Assembly: GCF_027744825.2 (NCBI RefSeq)
Contig: NC_071339.1
Location: 23,933,501 to 23,997,500 of the forward strand
Length of the DNA stretch: 64,000 nt
Reading direction: 5' to 3'
Source of the DNA: Synchiropus splendidus
Taxonomy: Eukaryota > Chordata > Actinopteri > Syngnathiformes > Callionymidae
Shown here piece by piece: positions 8,100-53,446 of this stretch. The translations under genes were made by a program, and so were the position numbers. Under the pieces are notes generated by a model that did not search any database, was not told where the DNA came from, and saw only the letters and a list, made by a program, of their open reading frames with translations. Numbering within the stretch: the first letter of the stretch is position 1; the number at the start of each line of letters is the position of its first letter.

Positions 8100-9300
8100 A
8101 AAGACGGATGTTTTTCGCTAATATGGGAGGAATGGTGCCTGGCTTTATCCAGATGGATAAAACAAATACTAAAGGTGGGTTACGCACTCCAGTTCAAATG
8201 TCAAGCCCTACAGCTCAAGGGGGTTTTAAGGACCGAACTGGAGAATTCTGTAAAGATCACCTGTCTCCAGGAAGAGGTTTGTACGCTGCTCAGAAAAGGA
8301 GTAATAGAACCAGTCACCCGACAGAATCAGATGACAGGTTTTTACTCTCATTACTTCCTGGTCCCCAAGAAGTCAGGCGGCTGGAGACCGATTTTGGATC
8401 TCAGCGACCTCAACGACTTTATTGTGCAGTGCCCTTTCAGAGTGTTAACAATAAAGAATCTTCGACAGTGCGTATGTCAGGGAGACTCGATGACTTCCAT
8501 CGATCTGTTGGATGCTTATTTTCACGTGCCAATCTGGCCCAGTCACAGGAAATATCTCTGGTTTGCCCACCAAAATCAGGTGTTTGAGTACCGGAGACTT
8601 CGTTTTGGTTACTTGCTCGCTCAGAACCTTCACAAAAATTATAGAGCCAGCCTTGGAACGTCTCAGTGCCCTGGGTGAATTTTATCATACTTGTGTGATT
8701 GGCTAATCCTCGCCAGATCTCAGGAGGAGTCACTGGCTCACTCCAGAATGGTGTTGGAGCATATAAGTCAGCTCGGGTTTGCTGTGAACCTGGAGAAGAG
8801 CTCGCTGAAGCTAGCCCAGTCGATGCCGTATTTAGGAGTGCAGGAGATTCTGTCCACCTCGCCAGGTGTGGTTCCAGCTCTGTGGAGAATGAGGCTCCTG
8901 GGTTTGATGGCGCCAGCCCACACCGTGGTCCAACTGGGTCTCGTGAATATGATGGAGCTGCGGAGGTGGTTCAGCTGACTTGAGCTTCACCCTGTTAAAG
9001 ACCAAAGGTGCCAGGTAAAAGTGCCAACACAACCGTTAAGAAACAGCAAACCTGCTTCGCACCGTAGCGTATGTCAACCGCCAAGGCGGGGTGAGGTCCC
9101 AAGCTCTGCACAAGCTGGTCAAAATAATTTGTAACGGCTAGCTTCCCTGACGGCGATTCATGTGCCCAGCCTACTCAATGTGGCCGCGGACAGGTTGTCC
9201 CATCGACCCCTCCCAGACAAGTGGGGTTTGTCCCAGAACATAGTGAAATTGATATGGAAGAGGTTCGGCCACCCGGTGGCTGACCTATTTGCAAGCAGAA
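8100..9300 (+). pseudogene. DIRS reverse transcriptase / RNase H, broken
   Basis: The frame 8175-8678 gives a clear RT: GYALQF, LLRKGVIEPV, FYSHYFLVPKKSGGWRPILDLSDLNDF, and SIDLLDAYFHVPI holding the first catalytic Asp. The FGYLLAQ segment then leads into a frameshift, and the second catalytic motif has lost its usual acidic pair at about 8690-8710. RNase H residues appear at 9060-9280 (AYVNRQGGVRSQ, then NVAADRLSHRPLPD and FASRKN). It resembles the RT at 38815-39807 on the other strand. Confidence 0.75.
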
Positions 9301-16706: not shown

Positions 16707-19700
16707 TCAATCAAAATAGTAATTCTGCACAAAGATGGCATTGCGGCCTCTGTAGACAGGCGGGTAGTTGTAGATGAGCGCTCTCCCTTCCTCCTCATGG
16801 CTTGAGAAACTGTGGTTGCTCCTCATGGCTGCAGCAAAGAGGGAAGGAAGATAATTTGACTCATCTCGCCTTTCTCTTTGATTTAGAGCGGTCATTGTTC
16901 TGGTTGTTCATTTTAAGAATGGCGATCCTGCTACACCCGGCAATATCAATGACTTTGGCGTCCTCTTGTGGTGATAATCCGCTTTGCTACCGTAAATCCC
17001 AGCAAGAAAAGAGACTTACACGATTTCAATCAGCTTTGAGATGATGCTGATCATACTTCAGACTAGTGAAAGATTAACTCAACAGTCCAAATACATGTTT
17101 GAGTAGTAACATCTGTTACTGTTTCACCTTCAGAGACGAAGAATCTGGCTGTGTAGAAGCTGGCCGTCACCGCAGCGCTCGAGTGAATCATCCCAGGCTT
17201 GTCGATCCACTCAAACTGACTTTTCTCTGGATGCCATTGCACAGCGTAGAACGGGTAACGGTAGGCTGAAAAAAGTGCGGGTGTAAATAAGACATATTTG
17301 AATCACAACTGAAAGCCAACTCACCTTCCATGGTGGAGATGAAGTCCTTCTTCCCATCCGTGTTGACCGTGAGAATCCTGTAAAATCGCTTCAGCTTTGC
17401 ATTCCTGCTGAAGTTCTGCAGAGTCAATGACAAATACCCTTGTAATTTCTCCGTTGGCAACTCTCAATCGTGTCAAAGTAAAGTACCTGCATTGTCAAAC
17501 TCCAACTGTGAAAATTAGAAGTGATGTTGTCCTCTGCCAGAGCCTGGAGGAGATCTTTGGGGAAAGATCTGAACAGACGGCTGGCCTGCAAAGCTGGGAA
17601 ACAAGACAAGAGAAAACTCTTATATGTGCACTATTAACACACCTACTAGCATTGTCTCCACGATATACAAAGGCAGCCCATTGCTGCTAGGTTTAAAAAG
17701 GAAAAAAAAAAAAAAAGTCACTGAGAAGAACAAAAGGGATGTGGAAGTTCTCATTGGTAAAACGCTCATCGCTGTAATTTGTGTATTGTTATTAGTGTCA
17801 ACATACTCCAAATGTTCACAAGATTAACCAAACATATGTTGATTATGATGTTGATGATGACGATGTATTGAGACCAGAAATGCTAAACACTGAGACCAGG
17901 AATACTAAAACAACAGAAGCAAATAATTCCAAAGTTCCATGAATGCATCACACCTCAGACGCAGTAAATGCAACTCTTGACCACTATAATTGATATAAAT
18001 ACCTGATATGAATGAAAATGCTTCATGTAAACATCGATATGAAATATGAAACTACCCAATTTGGCTAGTTCAGAATGGAATCTGAATAGAGTGGAGTTCA
18101 TTATGCAAATTGTTGGTGCTTCCATACACAAGATAACAAAAACAAACCACATAATTTCTTTGACTTTTTTCCTAAATATAACAATGATTGTCTTCATTTG
18201 ATGACAAAAATTATGCGATATCATGTGTAACACAGCGTGAGCACGAAGACCTCATTAGCTGCTATAGCTGGCTAGCAACCCTGAGCCCCATAGGTGAGAC
18301 AGCATGGACAAAAAACGACTTGTGACACTGTGCTCTTTCCTCATCAGGAACTAAAGCTCTTTAGACAATTTTCTAGGAGGACTCTTATAATAAGAGTCCC
18401 AGCCATGTTGTACAATGAAAGTCCTGTATGCAAGTCCTACAATCTGATAATGGTAACTTTTAATATTATACATATTCTAGGAGATACAAGTTGTTTCAAT
18501 GGTGTTTCTGGGCACCATAAGTGAAGACATAACGCACCGCAAGCTTGGAGTAGAGGTTAAGAAGATTTTCAAGATGGATTTCTGTGGAAGTCCACGATGT
18601 CCATACAAAGTACTTTAATAATCAGGCACAGTCATGTTGTGGACTATGTTTACTCCTCGGCATTCCAGGTCATGGGCTGTAAACTGCAAACTTTTTTTTC
18701 ACAAATGTCCCAGCCCTACAGTAAAAACAAATCTGGAGGCTTATGCATTGCATGCAAACTGAGGAAACAAACAGCTCTGATTTTGTCTCTAGCATGCCAC
18801 AACTCTTAACACAAACCTGGCTCCTTTCTGTTCTATCACGGTATGAAAACTTGATTACACTAAACTGTCCCTAGCCCCCCTCACTTCAACCCCCGCCACC
18901 GGGATTCCACGGAGAAAATACAAGCCTCCAGGAAGCGCCGTTAGTGAACAGATGGGGCAAAATCATACGGTGAGGATGCAGAACAAATGGAGGTAGGAAC
19001 TAAAGCTCTTTAGACAATTTTCCAGCAGGACACCTATAATAGGAGTCCCCTTTCTTCTGTTCAATATAATGCCAGCATGATGCAATACATTCTTCAGTGT
19101 TATTTGAGATCATTTACTGTACTTTAATTAAGACAATGGTCTTTTGGCACCCCAAGTGGCATTTCTTGAGTCTGTTTGCAGTGAAACTGAGGCTTTTGTC
19201 TTCCTAAACATGTGATTCTCTTTATTTAATCACAAAAAAAATCCACTTTCATCTTAACGGTTGTAGTGCTAAAAACCAACCTATTTGTGATATTGCCTAT
19301 GTAACATATTAATATGAAATAGCTAATCACATTAGCATTAGGAAATCATAGCTGCTAAAGCTAGATGCCACGCTCCGCCCAGAGCGGCACCACTAGTGAG
19401 ACAGCAAGGACAAAAGAAGACTGACGGCACTGTGCCCCTCCCCCATCAGAACTGAAGCTCTTCAGACCAGTTTGCACATGACTCCTTTATCAGCAGAGCA
19501 TTCTGTTCAATGTAATGCCCAGATGATTGAATATAGTGCAGTAAGTGCAGTGGCTCAATAAGATGTAGTCCTGTGCCTGGAGTGGCCGTATAAAATTCAC
19601 AGTTGCAATGAAACTCAATTTAAGTAGTCCACAATAAATTAACATACTCAAATACACAGTTGTTTTGGAGGTTTTTCACTAAAGTACATTGTTATATGAG

Positions 19701-22908: not shown

Positions 22909-23842
22909 CAGGAGACGTGTGGTGCTGCCGAATCCTCCGAACGATGAACGATGTGGCTGCTGGTTATGTAATAATAATCCCCACAGCGGTGTTAGTCAGA
23001 AATGTGGGCGAAGAACGGAGAGTCTTAGCGAGACCTCCGGATCTATTTAGAAAACCAGACGCGCAGGACAGCGTTCCAAAAGGCTCCCCCGCAGTGATCA
23101 CACGATACAGATCCAGCCAGTGGATGAACCAGAAGTACTAGTCCAGGTAGCGTGAGAGCAGGGCCGGTGCTAAGGTTTTGAGGGGCCGAACAAGCACTGT
23201 TGGGCAAATAAGTATAGAATAGAGCCACCTGCTCTATTCACATCACATCAGAGAACATTCGTTACCTTTATTTTGTTGATGTATTTTGAGACAGTGCTTA
23301 TAAGACACATTATTAAGATAACAAAAAGAGGGTTTAATAATAAGAATACCACGTACCTTCTTTGTGTACCTTACTTAAATAATAACTGATTCCTTTTTGA
23401 GTGCGAGGGGCATAGACGTTGTGAAGCCTTCTCAGTGTTGATGAACTGAAAGCCACGAACAGACTGTAGATGTGCGTGCAGTTTTACTTACGTTTTCAAG
23501 CAATAGACCTAAAGAACAAAGATCTGTGAAGTGAAAAGTTTTAATGATGAGATTACTGTACCTGTGTCCTCCAATGTTTTTTTCTTCTATGCAGCCTTAT
23601 TTCTGCAACGATGTTTCATTCAGAGTGACACGCATCTTGTTTAATTTAAACTCTGTTGCTTTTTTTCTTATGGTAATTTCAGTCGTATTTAATTTTCCAT
23701 ACGACAGTCAACGTCCTCTTGTTACTCCCTGTAGTAACATGAAGTCAACTCGTGGTGGCGGTAAATATTATCATTGGTCACCGGCCGCGTTCACTGTAAA
23801 CGAGGCGAAGAAGACGTCGTCTCTTACAACTTGTGCTGAGAA
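22909..23842. promoter_or_regulatory. shared ggh / uqcrc1 divergent promoter region
   Basis: The two start codons face away from each other with 934 bp between them. A CCAAT-type box (ATTGG) lies at 23774-23780, close upstream of the uqcrc1 start in a CpG-containing segment. No TATA box is obvious for either gene, which suits housekeeping genes. True transcription starts are unknown, and the middle part (23160-23700) may be unrelated repeat DNA. Confidence 0.45.
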
Positions 23843-26800
23843 ATGGCGGCGTCCGTGTGCCGAGTCGGGAGTACCGTGGGTCGAGCACTCGTCAAAAACC
23901 GAAATGTAAGCTTCATTGTAGAATGTTGTCAAATGTTAAGTGCTGAATTGCACGACTTTCACTCTTCAGAGCGATTAGAAACGTAAGCGTTAGGCTCGGT
24001 GATCACCAGTCAAGGGAATAAGCTAACCGGCTACTGCTCGATGCAAGGTCAACTGACCGCTACCGTTTTCAATCGAAGCAGTTGCACTTTATTGACAGTA
24101 TGAACCGCTTTCTCGAGACACGACCATTGTTTCATGAAGCTTATGTGAGCGTAACCGATGGTGGTAGCTGTAATTGTGCGTCCTTGTTCGTCCTCCCGAC
24201 AAATTGTAGCTTCAGTGCTAACCGCTTTAGCAGTGACATTCGTAAAATGTTGTCACACCAACGCACGCCTATTTTTATTGACAATATTTGAAAATGAAAT
24301 CGCGCTCTATTACGATGCCTAAAGTGTTAACACTCCGTAAAGTTTTTTTGCTACCAAAACCCTATAACGAAATGTACTTAGTTCACTTCTTAATATAGCA
24401 ATAGCTCCCAAACGTGTTACAAACGTTTATAAACGAATTCTGACTCGTTAATTAATAAATCAATGTTGAGTTACAAACGAACTTAATTCATAGAAGTCAA
24501 TAAAACCCCTTCTAAGCTTTGCCCACTTGAAGCGCTACATGTTTTTAGTGGCCATTACTGAAGGGCAGATCAGTGTCCTCACTAAGAGCCAGAGTCGGGG
24601 GTCGTACTCCTGCCTCTGGACCCAACGTGAGGTACATTACCAAAATATACCGGAATGTAACTCAGCTGTTTTAATAAGAATATTTTCAACTGTGCATATA
24701 AGCCCATCAAAGATTTAACAAAAGTGCATTAATTGAAAAAGTATCACAACATCTATATTGTCTTTTATATTTATTTGGGAATGTTTTTAATGAGCTGTTT
24801 TCCCCATCTATTCCAGCCCGTCCTCTTGTGCTTGCGGCGTGGACAGGCCTCCGTTAGCTATGCCCACAGTCTGCTGGGAGCCCCTGATACTCGACTTACT
24901 TCCTTGGAAAATGGCTTGAGGGTAGCATCCGAGGAGACTGGACATTCTACATGCACTGTGAGAAACTTTCATCATTGCGGTCGGTAGTCTTTATTTTGAC
25001 CCTTTGAGCTTTTCCCAGTTGAAGCTTCACATGTTTTTGGTGGCCATTATTGAGGGGTAGAGCAATGACCTCTCTAAGAGCCAGAGTCAGGGGTCGTACT
25101 CCTGCTTCTGGACCCAACGGGAGAAACATTCCATGGAGAGTCAAATATACAGAGGACTGTTAACGCCAGTGATTAGTAATGTGTCATACCTAAGGACTAT
25201 AAGCAGTTGCCCCTAAAATAACACTGTATTTATGTTTTGAATGTTCTTCTGCAGTTTGGTTTGTTCAGAAGGCTAAACCTGTACTGTATTGTCACCTTTG
25301 CAGGTTGGTCTATGGATCAGTACTGGCAGTCGGTATGAGAATGAGAAGAACAATGGCGCTGGGTTTTTCCTGGAGCACATGGCTTTCAAGGTATTGTGAA
25401 TTAGCTTTGCTAGAAGGCTGCTAGGGCAATATTAATGGTCTTAATTAAACCCCCCCCCCCAACCTACTTAAATGTTTGTCCTGAAGGGAACTAAAAAGCA
25501 CCCACAGACAGCATTGGAGCAGCAGGTGGAGTCCATGGGCGCTCATCTGAGTGCATACACTTCCCGGGAGCACACCGCTTACTATATGAAGACTTTGGCC
25601 AAAGATCTGCCAAAGGGTAAAAAAAGATCCTTCTCACTTTGCTACTTTTTTTCTGTCAGGTTTTAACTGTTCTCAAAACTGATCCACAGCTGTGGAGCTG
25701 CTGTCAGAAGTAGTGCAGAGCTGCTCATTGAGTGAGGCAGAAATTGAGCAGCAGAGAGGAGTTGTGCTTCGTGAGCTACAGGAAGTGGAAGGTAACCAGC
25801 AGGAAGTTTGTCTGGACTTGCTGCATGCCACAGCCTTCCAGGGAACCCCACTGGGCCAGAGTGTACTGGGACCCACCAACAATGTTAGGTAACTGCCAAT
25901 TACTAATTAGATAATCATATGCCAGAAGTATATGGCTCTTCTTAATGCCATTTATGGTGTCCTCAGATCTCTCACCCGTCAAGACTTGGTTGAATACATG
26001 GAAAGCCACTACAAAGCCCCTCGCATGGTCCTGGCTGCGGCAGGAGGTTGGTCTTCATTTTTGTCCGACAGCATTTCTGCTTATATGGAAGAGGCTTTTA
26101 CCTGGACGTCTTGATCTAAAGGTGTGAACCATGATGAACTCGTGAGCTTGGCCAAGTCCCACTTTGGCAACGTATCATTTGAGTATGAGGGAGATGCTGT
26201 TCCTGTGTTGGCTCCCTGCAGATTCACAGGCAGTGAGGTACAAAATCCTGATGCGCATATACATTATACTTAAAAGTCATGTTCTTTCACTTGGGTCTTT
26301 TTCCATATCAAACCATGCTTTTATGTTCAAGCGGTATGTGCTCTGCCCCTCAGATCCGCATGCGTGATGATGGTTTACCGCTTGCTCACATCGCTATTGC
26401 TGTAGAGGGAGCTGCTGCTGCTAGTCCTGACATTATTCCTCTCATGGTGGCTAACGCAACCATTGGGAGCTATGACCTCACCTACGGTGGAGGAAAGGTA
26501 GGCCAACATCTCTTATAGTTACCTGAATGACTATGAAGTTGCATCTTGGTGCTTATATCAGCTTAAGTTTGGCAGTTCAGCTGATCATTTCCCCTTTAAG
26601 CTTTTCCCACTTGAAGCTTATCATGTTTTTGGTGGCCATTTTTGAGGGGTAGATCATTGTCCTCTCTAAGAGCCAGAGTCAGGGGTCGTACTCCTGCTTC
26701 TGGACCCAACGAGAGGCACAACACCCAATGTTGAGCAGAAATGAGTATTATGTTCTCCATAGTTGTTAACTATCACAGATTTGCTGCTGTCAAGACAATT

Positions 26801-27956
26801 CAGTGACTCACTACTGCCACCATATGTGGCTCATCTACTAGTGTAGAGTGTCTCACGGCCCAGAGGTGTAAATCGAAAAAACCTTCGACGGGCCCTATGG
26901 TTACGTATCACTGATCTAGACCAAGAGTCTTAAACCCCGCCCTTTAAACTTGTACCAGGTTTTTGATCGAACCGGTCAAGCACACATAGTTGAACCAATA
27001 ATTCAGTTTTGGATTGTACATGTGTTTTTTATTTACCCATTTGATATTAAATCAACTTGGAGTACAAAAAGCTGACTTTCGCCTTCAGAACCTGAGCAGC
27101 CGCTTGGCTCGTCTGGCCGCAGAGGAGAATCTTTGCCACAGCTTCCAGGCCTTCCACTCCTCTTACAGTGACACCGGCCTCTTGGGCATTCATTTTGTCA
27201 CAGATAAGCACAACATAGAGGACATGATGCACTGGTCCCAGAACGCTTGGTTAGTGGCCTCTTGTGTAAATTATGTAATATTGTATGCATTTGTCAAGGT
27301 GTTCAACATCTTTCCTCACCTGTTTGATGCAGGATGAACTTGTGCACCACAGTGACGGAGAGTGATGTTGCTAGAGGGAAGGTTGCTCTGAAGGCCAGTC
27401 TGATTGGACAGCTTAATGGTACACAACGCTTGAGAACCAAATGGGTTTTCTCTGAACAATGTGTTTAACCAATATGACAACTTTTTTTCCCCTCTCTCTC
27501 TAAGGAACCACTCCCATTTGTGATGACATTGGCAGACACATCCTGAACTACGGGCGGCGTATTCCTCTGACTGAGTGGGACGCTCGCATTGACGTAAGTC
27601 AAAACCATCTCCTAGTCTTTTCAATTTTTGTGCCTTTGCAGGCATGTGGAAAAATAAAATCTCAATTTGGATGTTGTTTTTAAATGTTCAACTTTTCTTG
27701 GCCTCCTTGACTCTTGTCTCTCTTTCCAGGCTGTGACTCCAAGAATGGTTCGTGATGTGTGTTCCAAATACATATATGATAAATGTCCTGCTGTGGTTGG
27801 TGTCGGTAAGTAAAAAATATTGGCCAGAATCTGAATAAGAACTGTTACGCTCCAAGATTTGTTTTAAACATCACAATGTCCATCCCCCTAGGTCCGATTG
27901 AGCAGCTTCCTGACTACAACAGAATGCGCAGTGCCATGTACTGGTTGAGGTTCTAA
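23843..27956 (+). CDS. uqcrc1: cytochrome b-c1 complex subunit 1 (core I), 13 exons, complete
   Basis: Core subunit of mitochondrial respiratory complex III, in the matrix-facing part; related to mitochondrial processing peptidase beta. Exons: 23843-23905, 24817-24957, 25304-25390, 25487-25616, 25690-25888, 25967-26046, 26122-26237, 26354-26497, 27089-27249, 27333-27418, 27505-27593, 27730-27805 and 27892-27956. All phases join, giving 478 residues with no stop. The N-terminus ([18 protein letters not shown]) is an Arg/Lys-rich presequence. The M16 peptidase site is FFLEH (residues 89-93) in place of HxxEH, the substitution expected in UQCRC1 and not in PMPCB. Further landmarks: [38 protein letters not shown], and the C-terminus [19 protein letters not shown], which is diagnostic of UQCRC1. 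Introns 1, 2 and 8 carry snoRNA-like segments. Confidence 0.96.
24506..24639 (+). ncRNA. H/ACA snoRNA candidate 1 (uqcrc1 intron 1)
   Basis: Two hairpins joined by an H box. The 5' hairpin is closed by CCCTTC/GAAGGG, with an upper stem CCAC/GTGG and GAAGC/GTTTT. H box AGATCA is at 24567-24572. The 3' hairpin is closed by CCTCA/TGAGG, with upper stem CCAGAG/CTCTGG and CGGGGG/CTCCTG around the loop TCGTA. The ACA box is at 24634-24636, 3 nt before the proposed end. The 3' pocket arms are TAAGAG and ACCCAACG; the top of the right arm lies 14 nt above ACA. It lies in sense orientation, 178 nt upstream of the exon 2 acceptor. By family knowledge it would guide pseudouridylation of rRNA or snRNA with dyskerin; the target is not identified. 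Confidence 0.75.
24999..25131 (+). ncRNA. H/ACA snoRNA candidate 2 (uqcrc1 intron 2)
   Basis: Paralogue of the intron 1 segment with the same architecture. The 5' hairpin closes with ACCCTT/AGGGGT. H box AGAGCA is at 25059-25064. The 3' hairpin closes with TCTCT/GGAGA (one G-T pair), with upper stem CCAGA/TCTGG and CAGGGG/CTCCTG around TCGTA. ACA is at 25126-25128. The pocket arms TAAGAG and ACCCAACG are identical to candidate 1. It ends 173 nt before the exon 3 acceptor. Confidence 0.75.
25451..25460 (+). repeat. C-rich tract before uqcrc1 exon 4
   Basis: An 11-nt C run at 25450-25460 lies near the exon 4 acceptor, in place of a usual T-rich polypyrimidine tract. Confidence 0.6.
26591..26723 (+). 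ncRNA. H/ACA snoRNA candidate 3 (uqcrc1 intron 8)
   Basis: Third paralogue. The 5' hairpin closes with CCCCTT/GAGGGG. H box AGATCA is at 26651-26656, 15 nt below the top of the 5' pocket. The 3' hairpin closes with CCTCTC/GAGAGG, with upper stem CCAGA/TCTGG and CAGGGG/CTCCTG around TCGTA. ACA is at 26718-26720. Guide arms of the 3' pocket are again TAAGAG and ACCCAACG. The distance to the exon 9 acceptor is 366 nt, or about 204 nt once the hAT-like insertion at 26752-26913 is subtracted. Confidence 0.75.
26752..26913 (+). mobile_element. hAT-like element, right-hand fragment in uqcrc1 intron 8
   Basis: It matches the 3' part of the copies at 6700 and 52690 (TTCTCCAT, AACTATCACAGATTTG, then GGGCCCTATGGTTACGTATCACTG). 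Non-coding, no transposase. Confidence 0.6.
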
Positions 27957-28339
27957 GGAGTTAAAAGAGTGCTCTAGATTATCCCCAATATCTCCCCCAT
28001 CACATCATTGACCACTGTTGCAGTGAGTAATCATATGGCCCTTAACAAATTGGAGTTCACTGGACATTCGGGTCTTGGAAGAGAACCCAGTGGCCCTTTC
28101 GACTTTCCGCTCACATTATTGGCCCCACTTTTATTCGATCATGAATTTGTCTGCTACTCATGTGGCACAATTCATTTGCTGCTCTTGCTGCTGCTTTACA
28201 TGTTGCTTCAGATCAAATTATCCCTAAAATGTTCGTCAACTGTCAAAATCAGTCTGGAACGTGGTGCAAGAGCATATTTATAATTCTGTAAGATTTTGTT
28301 CTGTCCTCTATTGTACATAACAGGACTTGTTGTGGAGAT

Positions 28340-28345
28340 AATAAA
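28340..28345 (+). terminator. polyadenylation signal of uqcrc1
   Basis: AATAAA, 384 bp past the stop codon; the first good match downstream of the gene. Confidence 0.6.
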
Positions 28346-28394
28346 ACAGTCTAAATGCGCCTGTTTCTCTGTCACATCCAGCAGTTTGTATGGC

Positions 28395-28670
28395 TACTTA
28401 GGGCTTGTTTATCCTACTTTGTGGGGACCAATTCGTGACAAAACCACATGACTTTGTGGGGACATTTGGCTGGACCCCTAGAGGTTAAAGCCTCAATTTG
28501 AGGATGTAGGCTTCAAAATTACTGGGTTGTTTTAATTAGGTTTACGTTTGGTTCAGAGTAAATGTTAAGTTTAGCCATTTGTTTTAGATTCTTAGGTTTA
28601 AGGTGAGAGGCTGGGGAAAGCATGAAAGTCAATGACATGTCCCCACAAAAAACTGGAAATCACCTACTTG
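28395..28670. mobile_element. MITE-like repeat with GTCCCCACA ends
   Basis: TTTGTGGGGAC occurs at 28425 and 28456, and the inverted GTCCCCACAAA at 28640. The internal words GCTGGGGAAAGCAT and CATTTGTTTT are shared with 36016-36130 and with the complement of 41650-41800. Non-coding. Confidence 0.5.
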
Positions 28671-29830
28671 AACATACTCTGGTTTTATATTTGTGTTGCT
28701 GAAACTAGACGGTATGAGGATTGCATTAATTCAGACATTACAATGGAGATGCAGCTGACTATGAAGATAAGACCTCTTTAGTTCTAGCAGGGTCAGGACC
28801 TGTTTTGATGCACATTCCACTGCATCTTGACTCATAACAGATCTCATAACAACATCTCAGATGAACTTTCATGTTTCATCAGTGACTGAGATTCCATTGG
28901 TACGACTCCGTGTGACGCTCCGTGGCTTTAGTTTGACCCAAGTTTATTTATGATTCCTGTTACTTGAGAGCCCCGAGGCCTCGAGTAAACATGCTGAAGT
29001 TAACCACTGTCGCATCGTTACACTGATGAGGATCAGCGCAGTGATGGGACGCACTGAAGTGAGTCAGGAGGGAAGCGTAAGTTCTGGGCTCCAAAGTCTC
29101 TCCTTGTCAGCTCCGTAACACTCTCGATACCTGATCCTGAAAAAGACTGGATCAGTGACTGACGCTGTGGTGGGATGATCCCACTTGCACGGTCGGCCTC
29201 AAGATGCAACTCACAGAAGCAAACAGGCTTCCATCCACACTCCCATTTCTTATGCAACCACCCTTTGATGTCTAACGGATGGCCGCGTATTAAAAGGTCC
29301 GAATAAGATGTAGATTTTCATCATCGTCACACTAATGTGGGGGAAATTTGGGCCTGCTCTTTCATGGAGAACTGCTTTTCATGTGGGGGTGTGTGACGTT
29401 GGCGGCTCACGTCAGGTCCTGGAGATTGGTCTGTAGTCGGACTAAATCAGCGGAAATCTTAATATAGCTGCAAATTAGGAAAGAAAGTAGTTCTCCTATC
29501 GGCACATTCAGGAGAACTGATAATCAGCTTTAAAGGAGGCTCTTTCTGCATAGTTCCTGATGATCTATTCGTTGATTACGTGTAATCGATTCTGTAATTT
29601 TGGCAGAGAGGTGATGTTTCAGCGGGAAGCATCAAATGTTCAGGCTGTATTTATTAAAGCCCTTCCAATAAAATGATAACATAACGGCGTGACAGCATAG
29701 CGGTTACATTGATAAGATGGATGACCTCAACATGGAGCTAGTTTTTAGTGAAACCCTGGTGATCACCTGCAGGCGACGCTTTCCAACTCATGAACAATGA
29801 CAACACTGCCGTGTCATCACACACAGTTAT
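28671..29830. other. gene-free stretch between uqcrc1 and ucn3
   Basis: No exon or repeat boundary could be supported. It may contain regulatory DNA for ucn3, but nothing specific is visible. Confidence 0.35.
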
Positions 29831-29836
29831 TTTTAG

Positions 29837-30072
29837 ATGGAGCGGGATGGCAATGAGAGGAGGAGGAAATTAGATTATAAGAAGAGAGGGTGGGATCGTA
29901 CAGAAAGGGGACGTGTTCGTGGACGCATGTGGATGAAGACCCCTATCGTGAAGAGGAGCAGTCGGCTAAACACAGCGGTCCATCAGAGAGCAGCGGGGAA
30001 CCCACCGAACATTTGTACGAGCCCAGAGGAGGAGTGGCTGACTTACCGTCAACTTCAGACAGCAGTGGCAGA
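29837..30072 (+). other. possible 5' exon upstream of ucn3
   Basis: A purine-rich segment open in two frames ends at a consensus donor (GCAGAAAGTGAGTG near 30072). The ucn3 coding exon begins behind an acceptor (CTCCACAG at 30772-30779), and CRF-family genes usually have a non-coding first exon, so this could be that exon. There is no direct evidence of transcription. Confidence 0.25.
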
Positions 30073-30787
30073 AAGTGAGTGTTTGGCTTTAAATTATGTA
30101 CTTTGTTTTTTTTTTTTTTTTTTTGGTTATCAACTTTTGCATCACCTTTTATGTTCATAGGCATGGTTTGTTTAATAGGATAGTTGAGATTCAATATTTG
30201 TTTTATTATGCAATACAATAACATGTATATTTGCTTGTGCTACGGTTGGGAGATCAGCTCATTAGTGACCAGCACTCTAAATAGATGTTTTTCGGATAAA
30301 GATTATATTAAAATCAGCACTGGAATTATTTGTATTTTTACTTCTCCACTTTAGAGTTATCAATGGAGCTGAAAATTATTATATTGCATTTTATGGTTTT
30401 TTTTTTCATATTTAAGATATTTAATGGCTACATTTACATTTTTTCCTTTTTAATGTTAAATGAGAGATAAAATAAGCAAAACTCGAATGGGAAGGAACAA
30501 GTAGCTACCCAATAAACAAAGGCACTAGATATTAATATTATGTTATTAAAAAAAACGATAATTGTGGTGAATGTTTAAATGTAATAAAACATAATCACAC
30601 ATGTATTTTTAATGACAAATATTGATCATATTTTTTCCTCCATTTATCAAAGAGTGTACAATCATGTTCATAGTCATGCAGGAGAGTGGGGTGTAATTAT
30701 TATAATTTTTTGTGAATAACACTGGCCTTAGTCAGTGCAAGTCTCATTCCTGTTCCTCCATGTACTGCTTCCTCCACAGTGGCGACC

Positions 30788-31165
30788 ATGCGAAGTGTGT
30801 GTGTGAGTCCGTGTCTGCTGCTCCTCCTGCTGTGTTGTGTGGCAGCCCACAGAGTCAACGCTGTGCTGACCAAATCTGATGAAGACACCAAGCGTGACAT
30901 GCTGGCCATCGATATCCTGAACCACAGCGGTGTGTTGAACTCATTGCTCCAGTCAGAGCGTCGCACCATGCTCCGGAGCGTTCGGGCTCCTCGTCCGCTC
31001 GCTCAGGTGCCCAAGAGAGCTCAGCAAGGGTCTCGCTTTGCCCTCTCCCTCGATGTCCCCACCAGCATCCTGAGTGTCCTCATTGATCTGGCCAAGAACC
31101 AGGACATGAGGACCAAAGCTGCAGCCAATGCGGAACTGATGGCACGGATCGGCAAACGCAAATAA
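30788..31165 (+). CDS. ucn3: urocortin-3 precursor, intact
   Basis: Precursor of a CRF-family peptide hormone that acts mainly through CRF receptor type 2. It has 125 residues in a single coding exon. Residues 1-25 are a signal peptide with a Leu run (CLLLLLLCCVAA). The propeptide runs to a dibasic site KR (76-77). The mature peptide is about 38 residues, from Phe84 (FALSLDVPTSILSVLIDLAK) to Ile121, followed by Gly122 as amide donor and the basic KRK tail. The SLDVPT and AAANAELMA signatures separate it from CRF and urotensin I and fit urocortin 3 better than urocortin 2. A GTG 9 bases upstream is also in frame, but the ATG at 30788 with CGACC before it is the natural start. A splice acceptor lies just upstream, so the 5' UTR is spliced. 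Confidence 0.93.
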   Translation: MRSVCVSPCLLLLLLCCVAAHRVNAVLTKSDEDTKRDMLAIDILNHSGVLNSLLQSERRTMLRSVRAPRPLAQVPKRAQQGSRFALSLDVPTSILSVLIDLAKNQDMRTKAAANAELMARIGKRK

Positions 31166-37407: not shown

Positions 37408-37898
37408 GCCTGGTGCCTATGATCCAGAGATCGTCGTTCTTTTGGACATTCACAATTTAGTTTATGAACGCACTAGGGAAACAAGCAGCTAATTAAGTTA
37501 TTAAAATATGTTGTTGTTTAATTTATTTTATTTATTTATGTATTTTTCATTTCCAATTTCTGGATCATAGGAACCAGGCTCCCTGTCCTTCCTCTTCTCT
37601 CTCAAGTCCCTCGTTCCTCCAGGAAGCTCCTTTCATAAGTCTAGTTAAGTTGTGTATGTACAACAATGTGTCTTTTTGTTAATAAATGTTTTGAATGGGA
37701 ACCTTGGTCTTGTTGTAGAAATGCTTAGTTTCAAGTTAAGAAACTGAAAAACAGTGCAAAACTCAACAACTCAAGTTAAACAAAATGGACACAGTGTTAT
37801 TTTGTTGCAGACATGATAAATAATATGCAAGGAACTTTTGCTCTTTTGAAATAGGTGTGTGGCTCTTAAATGAGCCGTTGTGGTGCACTGAATGTGCT

Positions 37899-38810
37899 CT
37901 AGGTGTGTGGCTGCCATGGAACTACCCCCTCTGCAAAGGTTTCCCTCACCCGGAGAGCTTCCCTGCTCCGGTTGTTCGCTGCAACACGACCCAGACCTGG
38001 AAGTGGCTCGCCTGCATGAAATGGCACAATCTGTCTTGCTGATGCATCCCCTGCTGACATCCATATGTGATTGTGAAGAACGCACGTAGCCTTCACGCAC
38101 TTCTCCACAACATCGGGATGGACATCAATGACGCGCCTAAACAACCTCCACTGTGATGAAAGAATGCCAAAAGCATTCTCAACAACCAGCTGGGCCCTGG
38201 CCAGATGGTAGTTGTACACATTTTGCTCAGGAGGGAGGGTGCGCCCAGGGAATGGTCTCATGAGGTTCTTCCACAGGGGAAAAGCCTCATCTGCCACAAA
38301 CACGTAGGGCTGTGGTCCTCTGTGGCCATCTCCGGGAAGTGGACGGTCAGCAGGCAGGGAGAGAGAACCGGATCTTAGAGCCTGACCAAAGGCTGAATTT
38401 CCCAGGATCCCACCATCGCTACTTCTCCCGTACCCACCAACATCAATCACTCGGAAGCAGTATTTGGAGTCTACAACTGCAAGGAGAACTAGAGAAAAAG
38501 TTCCCTTGTAATTGTAAAAAAGAGATCCTGAGTTTGGTGGGGATTTCATGATGTTGTGTTTCCCGTCCACAGCAAAGCAGAAAGTTCTATCGCTTTTCAA
38601 ATTGTTGAGCAATGGATTGCCATTCGGCTGTGGAAGGCACAGCCATGATGTCCCCCACAAGGCAATCCCAAATAGCAGCTACAACTTCTGGGACAATTCC
38701 TTGGACAGTTGACACACCAACACGGAAGCTGTTGGCAATGGTCCTGAAGGAATCTCCATTTGCAAGATACCTGCAAAATTGAAGGTGAAGGTGAAATTGA
38801 AGGACACCAA
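37899..38810 (-). pseudogene. Harbinger DDE transposase, N-terminally truncated and broken
   Basis: Minus-strand translation gives the domain start LANGDSFRTIANSFRVGVSTV, then VAAIWDCLVGDIMAVP. After a stop (TAG where the family has Trp, just after EKR) and a frameshift, it gives AVDGKHNIMKSPPNSGSLFYNYKGTF, holding the first catalytic Asp. VVDSKYCFRVIDVGGYGRSSDGG, VFVADEAFPL (second Asp) and VVENAFGILSSQWR (Glu) follow. It is a nuclease of the DDE_Tnp_4 type. About the first 100 residues are replaced by DIRS reverse transcriptase sequence. Confidence 0.8.
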
Positions 38811-38814
38811 CTGA

Positions 38815-39807
38815 TCTGTCCCTGACTGGGTCGAGCCTGAGACGCGCGAACCAACGTTGAAGGCGTCTCATGTGCAAGAGACCCAGTTTGACTACCGAGT
38901 GAGCAGCCAACATGAGACCTAATAAGGTCATCACTTTGCTAACTCTCAATCTCTGGGCACTTCTCGCCGCCGTCACTGCGAGGAGAACTCTCGACAACCT
39001 CTCGTCTGACAGCCGCGCTATCATAGACTGAGAGTTGAGGAGCAACCCCAGATATTGAGTGCAAGTGCTGGGCTGCAGCGCACTCTTCTGGAGGTTGACC
39101 CCAAAGCCCAGACATGTGATGTGCCGCAGCACCATCGTCGTGTGACGCCGCGCTTCGTTCTCCGAAGCCACTAGAATGAGCCAGTCCTCCAGATATGTCA
39201 GGATTCTGATGCCCGCTGAGCGGCTCCAACACAGCATCCACCACCTTCGAGAAGGCAGGGAGTACCCGAAGGGCAGCCGGTCGAACTGGTAACAGTTGTC
39301 CCCCACTGCAAACCTCAGGTAGCGCCTGTGGCGCTGTAGGATGGGAACGTGAAAGTATGCATCCGTCAGATCCACGGAGGTTATCCAGTCCCCTGGCCTG
39401 ACACACTCGAGCAGTTGCTTTATTGTCAGCATCCTGAACGAGCAGGAGGAGATGAAGTCATTCAGCTGTCGCAGATCCAGAATTGGTCTGAGACCTCCTG
39501 ACCTCTTGGGGACCAGAAAATACATCGAGTAGAACCCTCTCTCGCGGTCCTCCTGGGGCACCAGAGAGATAGCTCGTTTCCGAAGGAGAGACTCCACCTC
39601 CTGCTCCAGACACAGACGCTCTGCTGGGGAGCGAGGAGACGTGAGACGGATTCCCGTGAACTCGGGGGAGCGGCGACAGAACTGAAGTGCGTAACCCCTG
39701 CTTAACGATATGTTTAACCAAGGGGCGAGGGGGCCGCACAAATCCACCCACACCGAGTGAAAATCTGTGAGGGTTTCAGCCAGAGACGGAAAATGCCCGC
39801 CCGCCAC
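38815..39807 (-). pseudogene. DIRS reverse transcriptase, nearly intact, 3'-truncated
   Basis: About 330 RT residues: GYALQFCRRSPEF, LLRKRAISLVPQ, GFYSMYFLVPKRSGGLRPI, SVDLTDAYFHVPI (first Asp) and RLPFGYS. In this copy the segment before ILTYLEDWLILVAS, which holds the active-site acidic residues in a YLEDWL context, is slightly rearranged. The conserved SVVKLGLLHMRRLQRWF end follows. The frame then runs straight into Harbinger transposase. An open frame of 406 codons (39807-38587) therefore spans two unrelated elements. Confidence 0.75.
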
Positions 39808-53235: not shown

Positions 53236-53446
53236 TTTGTGAATTTGTTTCTGAAGTCTGTAAATTTGATTTGTTTCAGTTTGTAAATGTGTTTTGCACT
53301 TCCAGCCACCGTAGTTCTGAGTGCTCTCTGCTCTGTTTCCCAACAAATTCGCAGAGAGCACTCAGAACTACGGTGGCTGGAAGTGCAAAACACATTTACA
53401 AACTGAAACAAATCAAATTTACAGACTTCAGAAACAAATTCACAAA
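53236..53446. repeat. perfect 96-bp inverted repeat with 19-bp spacer
   Basis: Arms 53236-53331 and 53351-53446 are exact reverse complements by base-by-base reading of the ends and spot checks inside; the spacer is 53332-53350. The pairing stops sharply at 53235/53447. Two mirror-image open frames (53411-53199 and 53271-53477) are a by-product. Confidence 0.9.

What the first reader, a model, noticed from the sequence alone, without database searches (positions are those of the whole stretch)
24506..26723. Three paralogous H/ACA snoRNA candidates in introns 1, 2 and 8 of uqcrc1
Segments at 24506-24639, 24999-25131 and 26591-26723 are alike and in sense orientation, and each has the full H/ACA layout: hairpin, ANANNA H box (AGATCA, AGAGCA, AGATCA), hairpin, ACA box 3 nt from the end. 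The lower stems differ but still pair: 5' stem CCCTTC/GAAGGG, ACCCTT/AGGGGT and CCCCTT/GAGGGG; 3' stem CCTCA/TGAGG, TCTCT/GGAGA and CCTCTC/GAGAGG. Covariation in both stems argues for selection on RNA structure. I could not match them to a named snoRNA, and I do not know of an annotated one in UQCRC1.
Basis: partly seen in the sequence, partly recalled or inferred. Interest (0 to 1): 0.88.

Follow-up and report, generated by a model that had tools for sequence, protein, structure and literature searches.

The report
Orphan-site guide RNAs in fish UQCRC1
Three introns of one fish mitochondrial-protein gene (UQCRC1) each hold a related 134-base stretch with the layout of an H/ACA guide RNA, and one of them is predicted to direct a chemical change at a position of 18S ribosomal RNA (human position 1177) for which a 2024 human study states that no guide is known.

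Summary
Three sense-strand 134-nt segments (24506-24639, 24998-25131, 26590-26723) align without gaps at 82-88% identity, with unalignable flanks. Each has hairpin, ANANNA box, hairpin and ACA 3 nt from the end. They lie in introns 1, 2 and 8 of UQCRC1, 99% identical to that of the dragonet Synchiropus picturatus. A search of the 583-Mb genome found only these three and three more in a 99.5% identical second copy of the locus, so they are not a dispersed repeat. They miss Rfam's cut-offs; nearest are SNORA26/SNORA27 (one clan), while the genome's own SNORA26 sits in nop56. Three-copy covariation is weak (62 of 500 shuffles match it). Better evidence: a cardinalfish UQCRC1 gene model reads into intron 8 and translates the same element. 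The 3' pocket is invariant but has no convincing target. Expression, the fish's own 18S and pseudouridine at this site in fish were not tested. A new member of a known kind, with an unusually testable target.

The parts
24506..24639 (+). copy 1 (c1), H/ACA snoRNA candidate, intron 1 of uqcrc1
24998..25131 (+). copy 2 (c2), H/ACA snoRNA candidate, intron 2
26590..26723 (+). copy 3 (c3), H/ACA snoRNA candidate, intron 8
24567..24572 (+). H box AGATCA of c1
25059..25064 (+). H box AGAGCA of c2
26651..26656 (+). H box AGATCA of c3
24634..24636 (+). ACA box of c1
25126..25128 (+). ACA box of c2
26718..26720 (+). ACA box of c3
24515..24522 (+). c1 5' pocket, left guide arm AGCUUUGC: 8 pairs to 18S 3' of U1177
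24552..24555 (+). c1 5' pocket, right guide arm CCAU: 4 pairs to 18S 5' of U1177
25007..25014 (+). c2 left guide arm (one mismatch to 18S)
25044..25047 (+). c2 right guide arm CCAU
26599..26606 (+). c3 left guide arm (one mismatch to 18S)
26636..26639 (+). c3 right guide arm CCAU
24583..24588 (+). c1 3' pocket left arm UAAGAG, invariant in the three copies, target unknown
24620..24626 (+). c1 3' pocket right arm ACCCAAC, invariant in the three copies, target unknown
23843..27957 (+). host gene uqcrc1, 13 coding exons, start codon to stop codon

Best explanation
Introns 1, 2 and 8 of this fish's UQCRC1 gene hold three related segments with the full box H/ACA layout; they are likely released from the spliced introns as guide snoRNAs, and copy 1 is predicted to direct pseudouridine to 18S rRNA U1177 (human numbering). 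In that model dyskerin binds the two-hairpin RNA. The 5' pocket pairs with 18S on both sides of U1177 (4 pairs on its 5' side, 8 on its 3' side after one free base) and places that U in the active site 15 nt above the H box. Copies 2 and 3 share the pocket with one mismatch in the left arm and would be weaker or redundant guides. The 3' pocket is kept letter for letter and probably guides a second, unidentified site. By sequence they are likely old, retargeted paralogs of the SNORA26/SNORA27 clan. Shown: layout, host, copy number, pairing of copy 1 with an 18S sequence recalled from memory. Inferred: transcription, processing, dyskerin binding, the modification itself, descent from the SNORA26/27 clan.
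For: Layout and boxes; stable two-hairpin folds for c1 and c3. Similarity stops at the RNA ends. Of 28 varying columns (of 134), none is in ACA or at the three fixed H-box letters; 1 of 12 guide letters that pair with 18S varies, 0 of 13 in the 3' pocket, against 4 of 7 in the 5' loop and 4 of 6 in linkers. Three sense copies in one gene, and the genome search found none elsewhere except in a 99.5% identical second locus. A Sphaeramia orbicularis UQCRC1 model (P0046) reads into intron 8 and contains VPFKLCPLEAVYV, matching the frame of c1/c3 (score 50; best of 300 shuffles 34; 28 against the rest of these introns); its Cys codon (TGY) forces the G that completes the 18S pairing in c1. Target: c1 has 12 uninterrupted Watson-Crick pairs at 18S U1177; 13 of 2000 shuffled guides find any site as good; U1177 ranks first of 1289 U by duplex energy for c1 and first for all three copies in the register scan. 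PMC11084827 (passages) measures human 18S-Psi1177 and says its guide is not known. In one search no H/ACA family outside the SNORA26 clan reached E 5; the genome's own SNORA26 aligns with each copy better than 500 of 500 mononucleotide shuffles of it.
Against: No expression data. Whether fish carry Psi1177 is unknown. c2 and c3 have a mismatch; by duplex energy U1177 ranks only 28th and 17th of 1289 for them, behind sites in 5.8S, U2 and elsewhere; 19 and 13 of 100 shuffles score as well; and U1177 is not among their hits when pairing must be uninterrupted. A positive control is weak: SNORA26's 3' pocket puts its 28S site (recalled) first, but 56 of 100 shuffles score as well. Three-copy covariation is not significant. 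c2's best fold is not H/ACA. The link to SNORA26 rests on sub-cut-off scores; the same family search also rings, below the cut-off, in 6 of 14 control prokaryote genomes, and no unrelated H/ACA RNA was aligned as a control.
Confidence: 0.63

Rival explanations
1. They are real H/ACA snoRNAs but U1177 is a chance match; the working pocket is the invariant 3' one, or both pockets are orphan.
For: The 3' pocket has 0 of 13 letters varying, more constant than the 5' pocket. c2 and c3 mismatch U1177, and the match significance rests on c1 alone.
Against: 12 uninterrupted pairs, a known Psi without a reported guide, and a cardinalfish letter that restores the full pairing. No 3' pocket target stands out: 25-30 of 100 shuffles score as well.
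Confidence: 0.22
2. They are simply SNORA26 (or SNORA27) gene copies.
For: Best Rfam hits are SNORA26 at 33, 29.1 and 27 bits; the twin of c3 in the second locus scores 29.2 with SNORA27, same clan.
Against: All are below the cut-offs (40 and 64). The model starts 13-14 nt inside the 5' hairpin and mispairs it. The genome has a separate SNORA26 over the cut-off, in nop56. The guide letters differ.
Confidence: 0.05
3. Dead or dying snoRNA copies, or a snoRNA-derived mobile repeat, without function.
For: c2 folds poorly; similarity ends at the RNA ends, as for a retroposed RNA.
Against: The genome search found no copies outside the two uqcrc1 loci. Boxes intact in all three. Intron 8 of a cardinalfish, another percomorph lineage (Gobiaria against Syngnathiaria), still holds the element.
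Confidence: 0.08

Closest known systems
SNORA26 and SNORA27 (Rfam RF00568, RF00443; clan CL00032)
   Same: H/ACA scaffold, some overall sequence similarity, nearest Rfam families
   Different: Scores under the cut-offs; longer 5' hairpin; different guide letters; host uqcrc1, while this fish's SNORA26 is in nop56 and zebrafish snora26/snora27 are in dancr (PMC12694859, passages)
SNORA40 (ACA40), guide of human 18S-1174
   Same: H/ACA guide to a U three bases away (PMC6466398, table passage); chicken ACA40-type guides GGgACA19/20 (PMC2653536 Table 2)
   Different: Targets 1174, not 1177; no sequence comparison made here
GGgACA4, three isoforms in introns 6, 7 and 10 of chicken PABPC4 (PMC2653536 Table 2)
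   Same: Several H/ACA paralogs in different introns of one host gene
   Different: Other host and target (18S-36)

Membership tests
box H/ACA snoRNA | two hairpins joined by a hinge | tested here: met
   c1 and c3 by free folding, c2 only when the halves fold apart (1.3 kcal/mol above its best fold)
box H/ACA snoRNA | H box ANANNA in the hinge | tested here: met
   AGATCA, AGAGCA, AGATCA
box H/ACA snoRNA | ACA 3 nt from the 3' end | tested here: met
   ACA present in all three; the exact RNA end is assumed
box H/ACA snoRNA | pseudouridylation pocket complementary to a target, 14-16 nt above the box (distance rule recalled) | tested here: met
   met by c1 only: 5' pocket to 18S U1177, 15 nt above the H box; 18S recalled; c2 and c3 carry one mismatch
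box H/ACA snoRNA | mature RNA bound by dyskerin/NHP2/NOP10/GAR1 | not testable with these tools
   no RNA data
SNORA26 (RF00568) | score over the curated gathering cut-off of 40 bits | tested here: not met
   33, 29.1, 27 bits
SNORA26 (RF00568) | guide letters for its own targets | tested here: not met
   pocket letters differ from the genome's SNORA26
SNORA27 (RF00443) | score over the gathering cut-off of 64 bits | tested here: not met
   29.2 bits for the twin of c3
scaRNA (H/ACA with CAB box UGAG) | UGAG in a terminal loop | tested here: not met
   loops (5' columns 29-35, 3' columns 98-100) hold no UGAG (sequence; motif recalled)
dispersed snoRNA-derived repeat | many copies across the genome | tested here: not met
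   6 matches in 582.7 Mb, in two near-identical uqcrc1 loci

The most novel reading that the evidence does not exclude
The uqcrc1 elements are the missing vertebrate guides of 18S Psi1177: a SNORA26/27-clan scaffold was retargeted to this site, copied into three introns of one host gene, and an unrecognised relative with the same pocket does this job in other vertebrates, humans included.
Probability: 0.35. Interest if true: 0.68.

Novelty: new member of a known kind. Interest (0 to 1): 0.52.

Why it matters
Vertebrate rRNA pseudouridines are generally made by H/ACA guides (established knowledge, recalled), yet some sites have none assigned. Psi1177 is one, and it was reported to rise on TGF-beta2 stimulation of human chondrocytic cells (PMC11084827, passages). 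If these elements guide it, the pocket letters give a probe for the missing human guide, and deleting them in a fish gives a direct test of what this single modification does. The case would also show a guide family under the curated Rfam cut-offs inside a housekeeping gene.

Tried and rejected
SNORA26 membership: rejected (scores under cut-off, separate SNORA26 in nop56). SINE-like repeat: rejected. Covariation as proof of structure: not enough with three copies. A 3' pocket target: the best in the register scan was the 28S U in GCGUUGGAUUGUUCACC with one mismatch, no better than 25-30 of 100 shuffles; rejected. More distant paralogs in the window: none above 15.1 bits, and those hits lie on the opposite strand over the copies themselves. 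Relatives through spurious reading frames: the minus-strand frame of c2 found no candidate; the cardinalfish insert found only itself. Of the 120 fish UQCRC1 proteins listed (6074 passed the threshold), inserts of 6 residues or more were listed; the 11 near the exon 8/9 junction were compared with the elements, the others were only looked at; P0046 alone stood out, the other ten were matched by 6 to 48 of 50 shuffles.

Literature: UQCRC1 with snoRNA gave 13 papers, none about a uqcrc1 snoRNA by title (listing only). Psi1177 terms gave PMC11084827 alone; looser terms gave 85 papers, 40 listed, none about rRNA by title; a broader search gave 122, 20 listed, of which three were opened by passages. 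Searches were read as listings; from them PMC12694859, PMC2653536 and PMC8351944 were opened.

Full report
What was checked. The three segments exist as described. In one ungapped register they are 24506-24639 (c1), 24998-25131 (c2) and 26590-26723 (c3), all on the + strand. Identity over 134 nt is 82% (c1/c2), 84% (c1/c3) and 88% (c2/c3); the 60 nt upstream and downstream are 13-35% identical, which is no similarity. No further copy was found in the window by blastn or with a covariance model.

Host. Thirteen coding exons from 23843 to 27957 give a 478-aa UQCRC1. The best solved relatives are named cytochrome b-c1 complex subunit 1, and the closest protein is 99% identical over its length, from Synchiropus picturatus, a dragonet. 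The elements sit in introns 1, 2 and 8, the three longest (911, 346, 591 nt; the other nine are 73-136 nt).

Structure. c1 and c3 fold into two hairpins with z-scores near -4; c2 prefers another fold by 1.3 kcal/mol. In a common H/ACA structure 97.1% of 105 cells pair, against 40-60% when one side is slid by 1-3 columns; 2 of 35 pairs change on both sides; 62 of 500 shuffles reach the covariation score. So the structure fits, but three copies cannot prove selection by covariation. The distribution of changes is more telling: 28 of 134 columns vary, 0 of 3 in ACA, 0 of 3 at fixed H-box letters (1 of 3 at its free letters), 0 of 13 in the 3' pocket, 1 of 12 among guide letters paired to 18S, 4 of 46 in upper stems, 7 of 24 in lower stems, 3 of 6 in the unpaired part of the 5' pocket, 4 of 7 in the 5' loop, 4 of 6 in linkers, 4 of 4 at the ends.

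Copy number. A DNA search of the window's own assembly (582.7 Mb, 96 contigs) found 6 matches at E 0.001 or better: the three in the window and three in the same order 3 Mb away on the same contig. That second locus is 99.5% identical over the 8 kb examined: a recent duplication or an uncollapsed haplotype, which I cannot tell apart. Nothing else matched, so this is not a dispersed repeat; the tool warns that very common words are skipped, and more distant relatives would not show.

Relatives in Rfam. No match reaches a gathering cut-off. Below it, the best is SNORA26 at 33, 29.1 and 27 bits (cut-off 40), with an alignment that begins 13-14 nt inside the elements and mispairs the 5' hairpin. 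In a 64-kb scan other sub-cut-off hits reach 18-45 bits, and the SNORA26 model rings below its cut-off in 6 of 14 control prokaryote genomes, so these scores alone prove little. But no H/ACA family outside that clan reached E 5, and the twin of c3 scores best with SNORA27, same clan (29.2 bits, cut-off 64). The genome has a separate SNORA26 over the cut-off (47 bits), between exons with Nop domains closest to NOP56 and with SNORD57 in the same locus. Its 128 nt align globally with c1, c2 and c3 at scores 79, 80 and 68; 0 of 500 mononucleotide shuffles reach any of them. No other H/ACA RNA was aligned as a control, so common H/ACA layout may explain part of this. I read the elements as old, retargeted relatives of the SNORA26/27 clan, not members of either family.

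Another fish. Among 120 listed UQCRC1 proteins, the gene model of Sphaeramia orbicularis (P0046), a cardinalfish, reads into intron 8. Its insert starts VGK, as a GT-starting intron would, and contains VPFKLCPLEAVYV. In the same frame c1 reads TPSKLCPLEALHV and c3 FPFKLFPLEAYHV. The ungapped score is 50; the best of 300 shuffles is 34; the best against the remaining sequence of the three introns is 28; the ten other inserts compared are at the level of their shuffles. Of 24 codon-determined positions, 19 match c1, 17 c2 and 19 c3. So the intron 8 element is shared by two percomorph lineages. Its Cys codon, TGY, puts a G where c1 has G and c2/c3 have U, and this G completes the 18S pairing. This is one species out of 120 proteins; the DNA itself was not seen.

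Target. Scanning every U of recalled human 18S, 5.8S, parts of 28S and six snRNAs (6242 nt with some overlap, 1289 U), the best site of all three 5' pockets is 18S U1177: score 30 for c1 (1 of 100 shuffles as good), 24.5 for c2 (19 of 100), 25.6 for c3 (13 of 100). c1 pairs without interruption, 4 bases 5' of U1177 and 8 bases 3' of it after one free base; 13 of 2000 shuffles find any site as good; c2 and c3 have no such uninterrupted match there. About four distinct pockets were tried, so this is suggestive, not proof. By duplex energy U1177 ranks 1st, 28th and 17th of 1289 for c1, c2 and c3. The recalled 18S has U at 15 of 15 Psi positions checked, 12 of them printed in papers seen here. As a calibration, the 3' pocket of SNORA26 puts its 28S site (target recalled) first, but 56 of 100 shuffles score as well, and its 5' pocket is matched by 44 of 100, so the scan cannot by itself separate true from false.

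What is known of the site. PMC11084827 (passages) quantifies human 18S-Psi1177, finds it raised by TGF-beta2, and states in a figure legend that its guide snoRNA is not known. SNORA40 guides 1174 (PMC6466398, table passage). The chicken catalogue lists no guide for the chicken equivalent in its Table 2 (PMC2653536, section 6 read whole; equivalence by the offset 1174 to 1132 is my inference). Several H/ACA paralogs in different introns of one host are known there (GGgACA4, PABPC4). Searches for UQCRC1 with snoRNA and for Psi1177 showed no paper, by title or passage, that assigns a guide or names a uqcrc1 snoRNA, within open-licence papers only.

Verdict. H/ACA snoRNA genes: about 0.9. Second target of the 3' pocket: open. 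The kind of element is known; the value lies in a named, testable target that lacks a guide.

Noticed in passing
window 18346-18402 and 18995-19051 (+): Two U7 snRNA-like segments 650 nt apart, 33.7 and 26.3 bits (cut-off 34), both with AGCUCUUU and an Sm-like site (motifs recalled); possibly real U7 genes of this fish just under the Rfam cut-off.
   Followed up: partly
L008 (own genome C6:15377652-15377770, -): This fish's SNORA26 lies between exons of nop56, with SNORD57 in the same locus, whereas zebrafish snora26 is reported in dancr: a possible host switch.
   Followed up: partly
L007 (own genome C6:26968500-26976500): A second uqcrc1 locus 3 Mb away, 99.5% identical to window 22940-30952 over 8 kb; recent duplication or assembly artefact.
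   Followed up: partly
window 37902-39807 (-): A DDE_Tnp_4 transposase frame overlaps the end of a reverse transcriptase frame (RVT_1): two kinds of mobile element side by side.
   Followed up: partly
window 8175-8675 (+): Weak reverse transcriptase fragment, 26.1 bits, under the Pfam cut-off of 29.6.
   Followed up: no
window 53298-53384 (-): Segment that several microRNA models hit far below their cut-offs (MIR8562 45 bits of 211), on both strands for mir-304, so probably an inverted repeat.
   Followed up: no
window 37836-37881 (-): Histone 3' stem-loop-like segment, 24.8 bits (cut-off 34).
   Followed up: no
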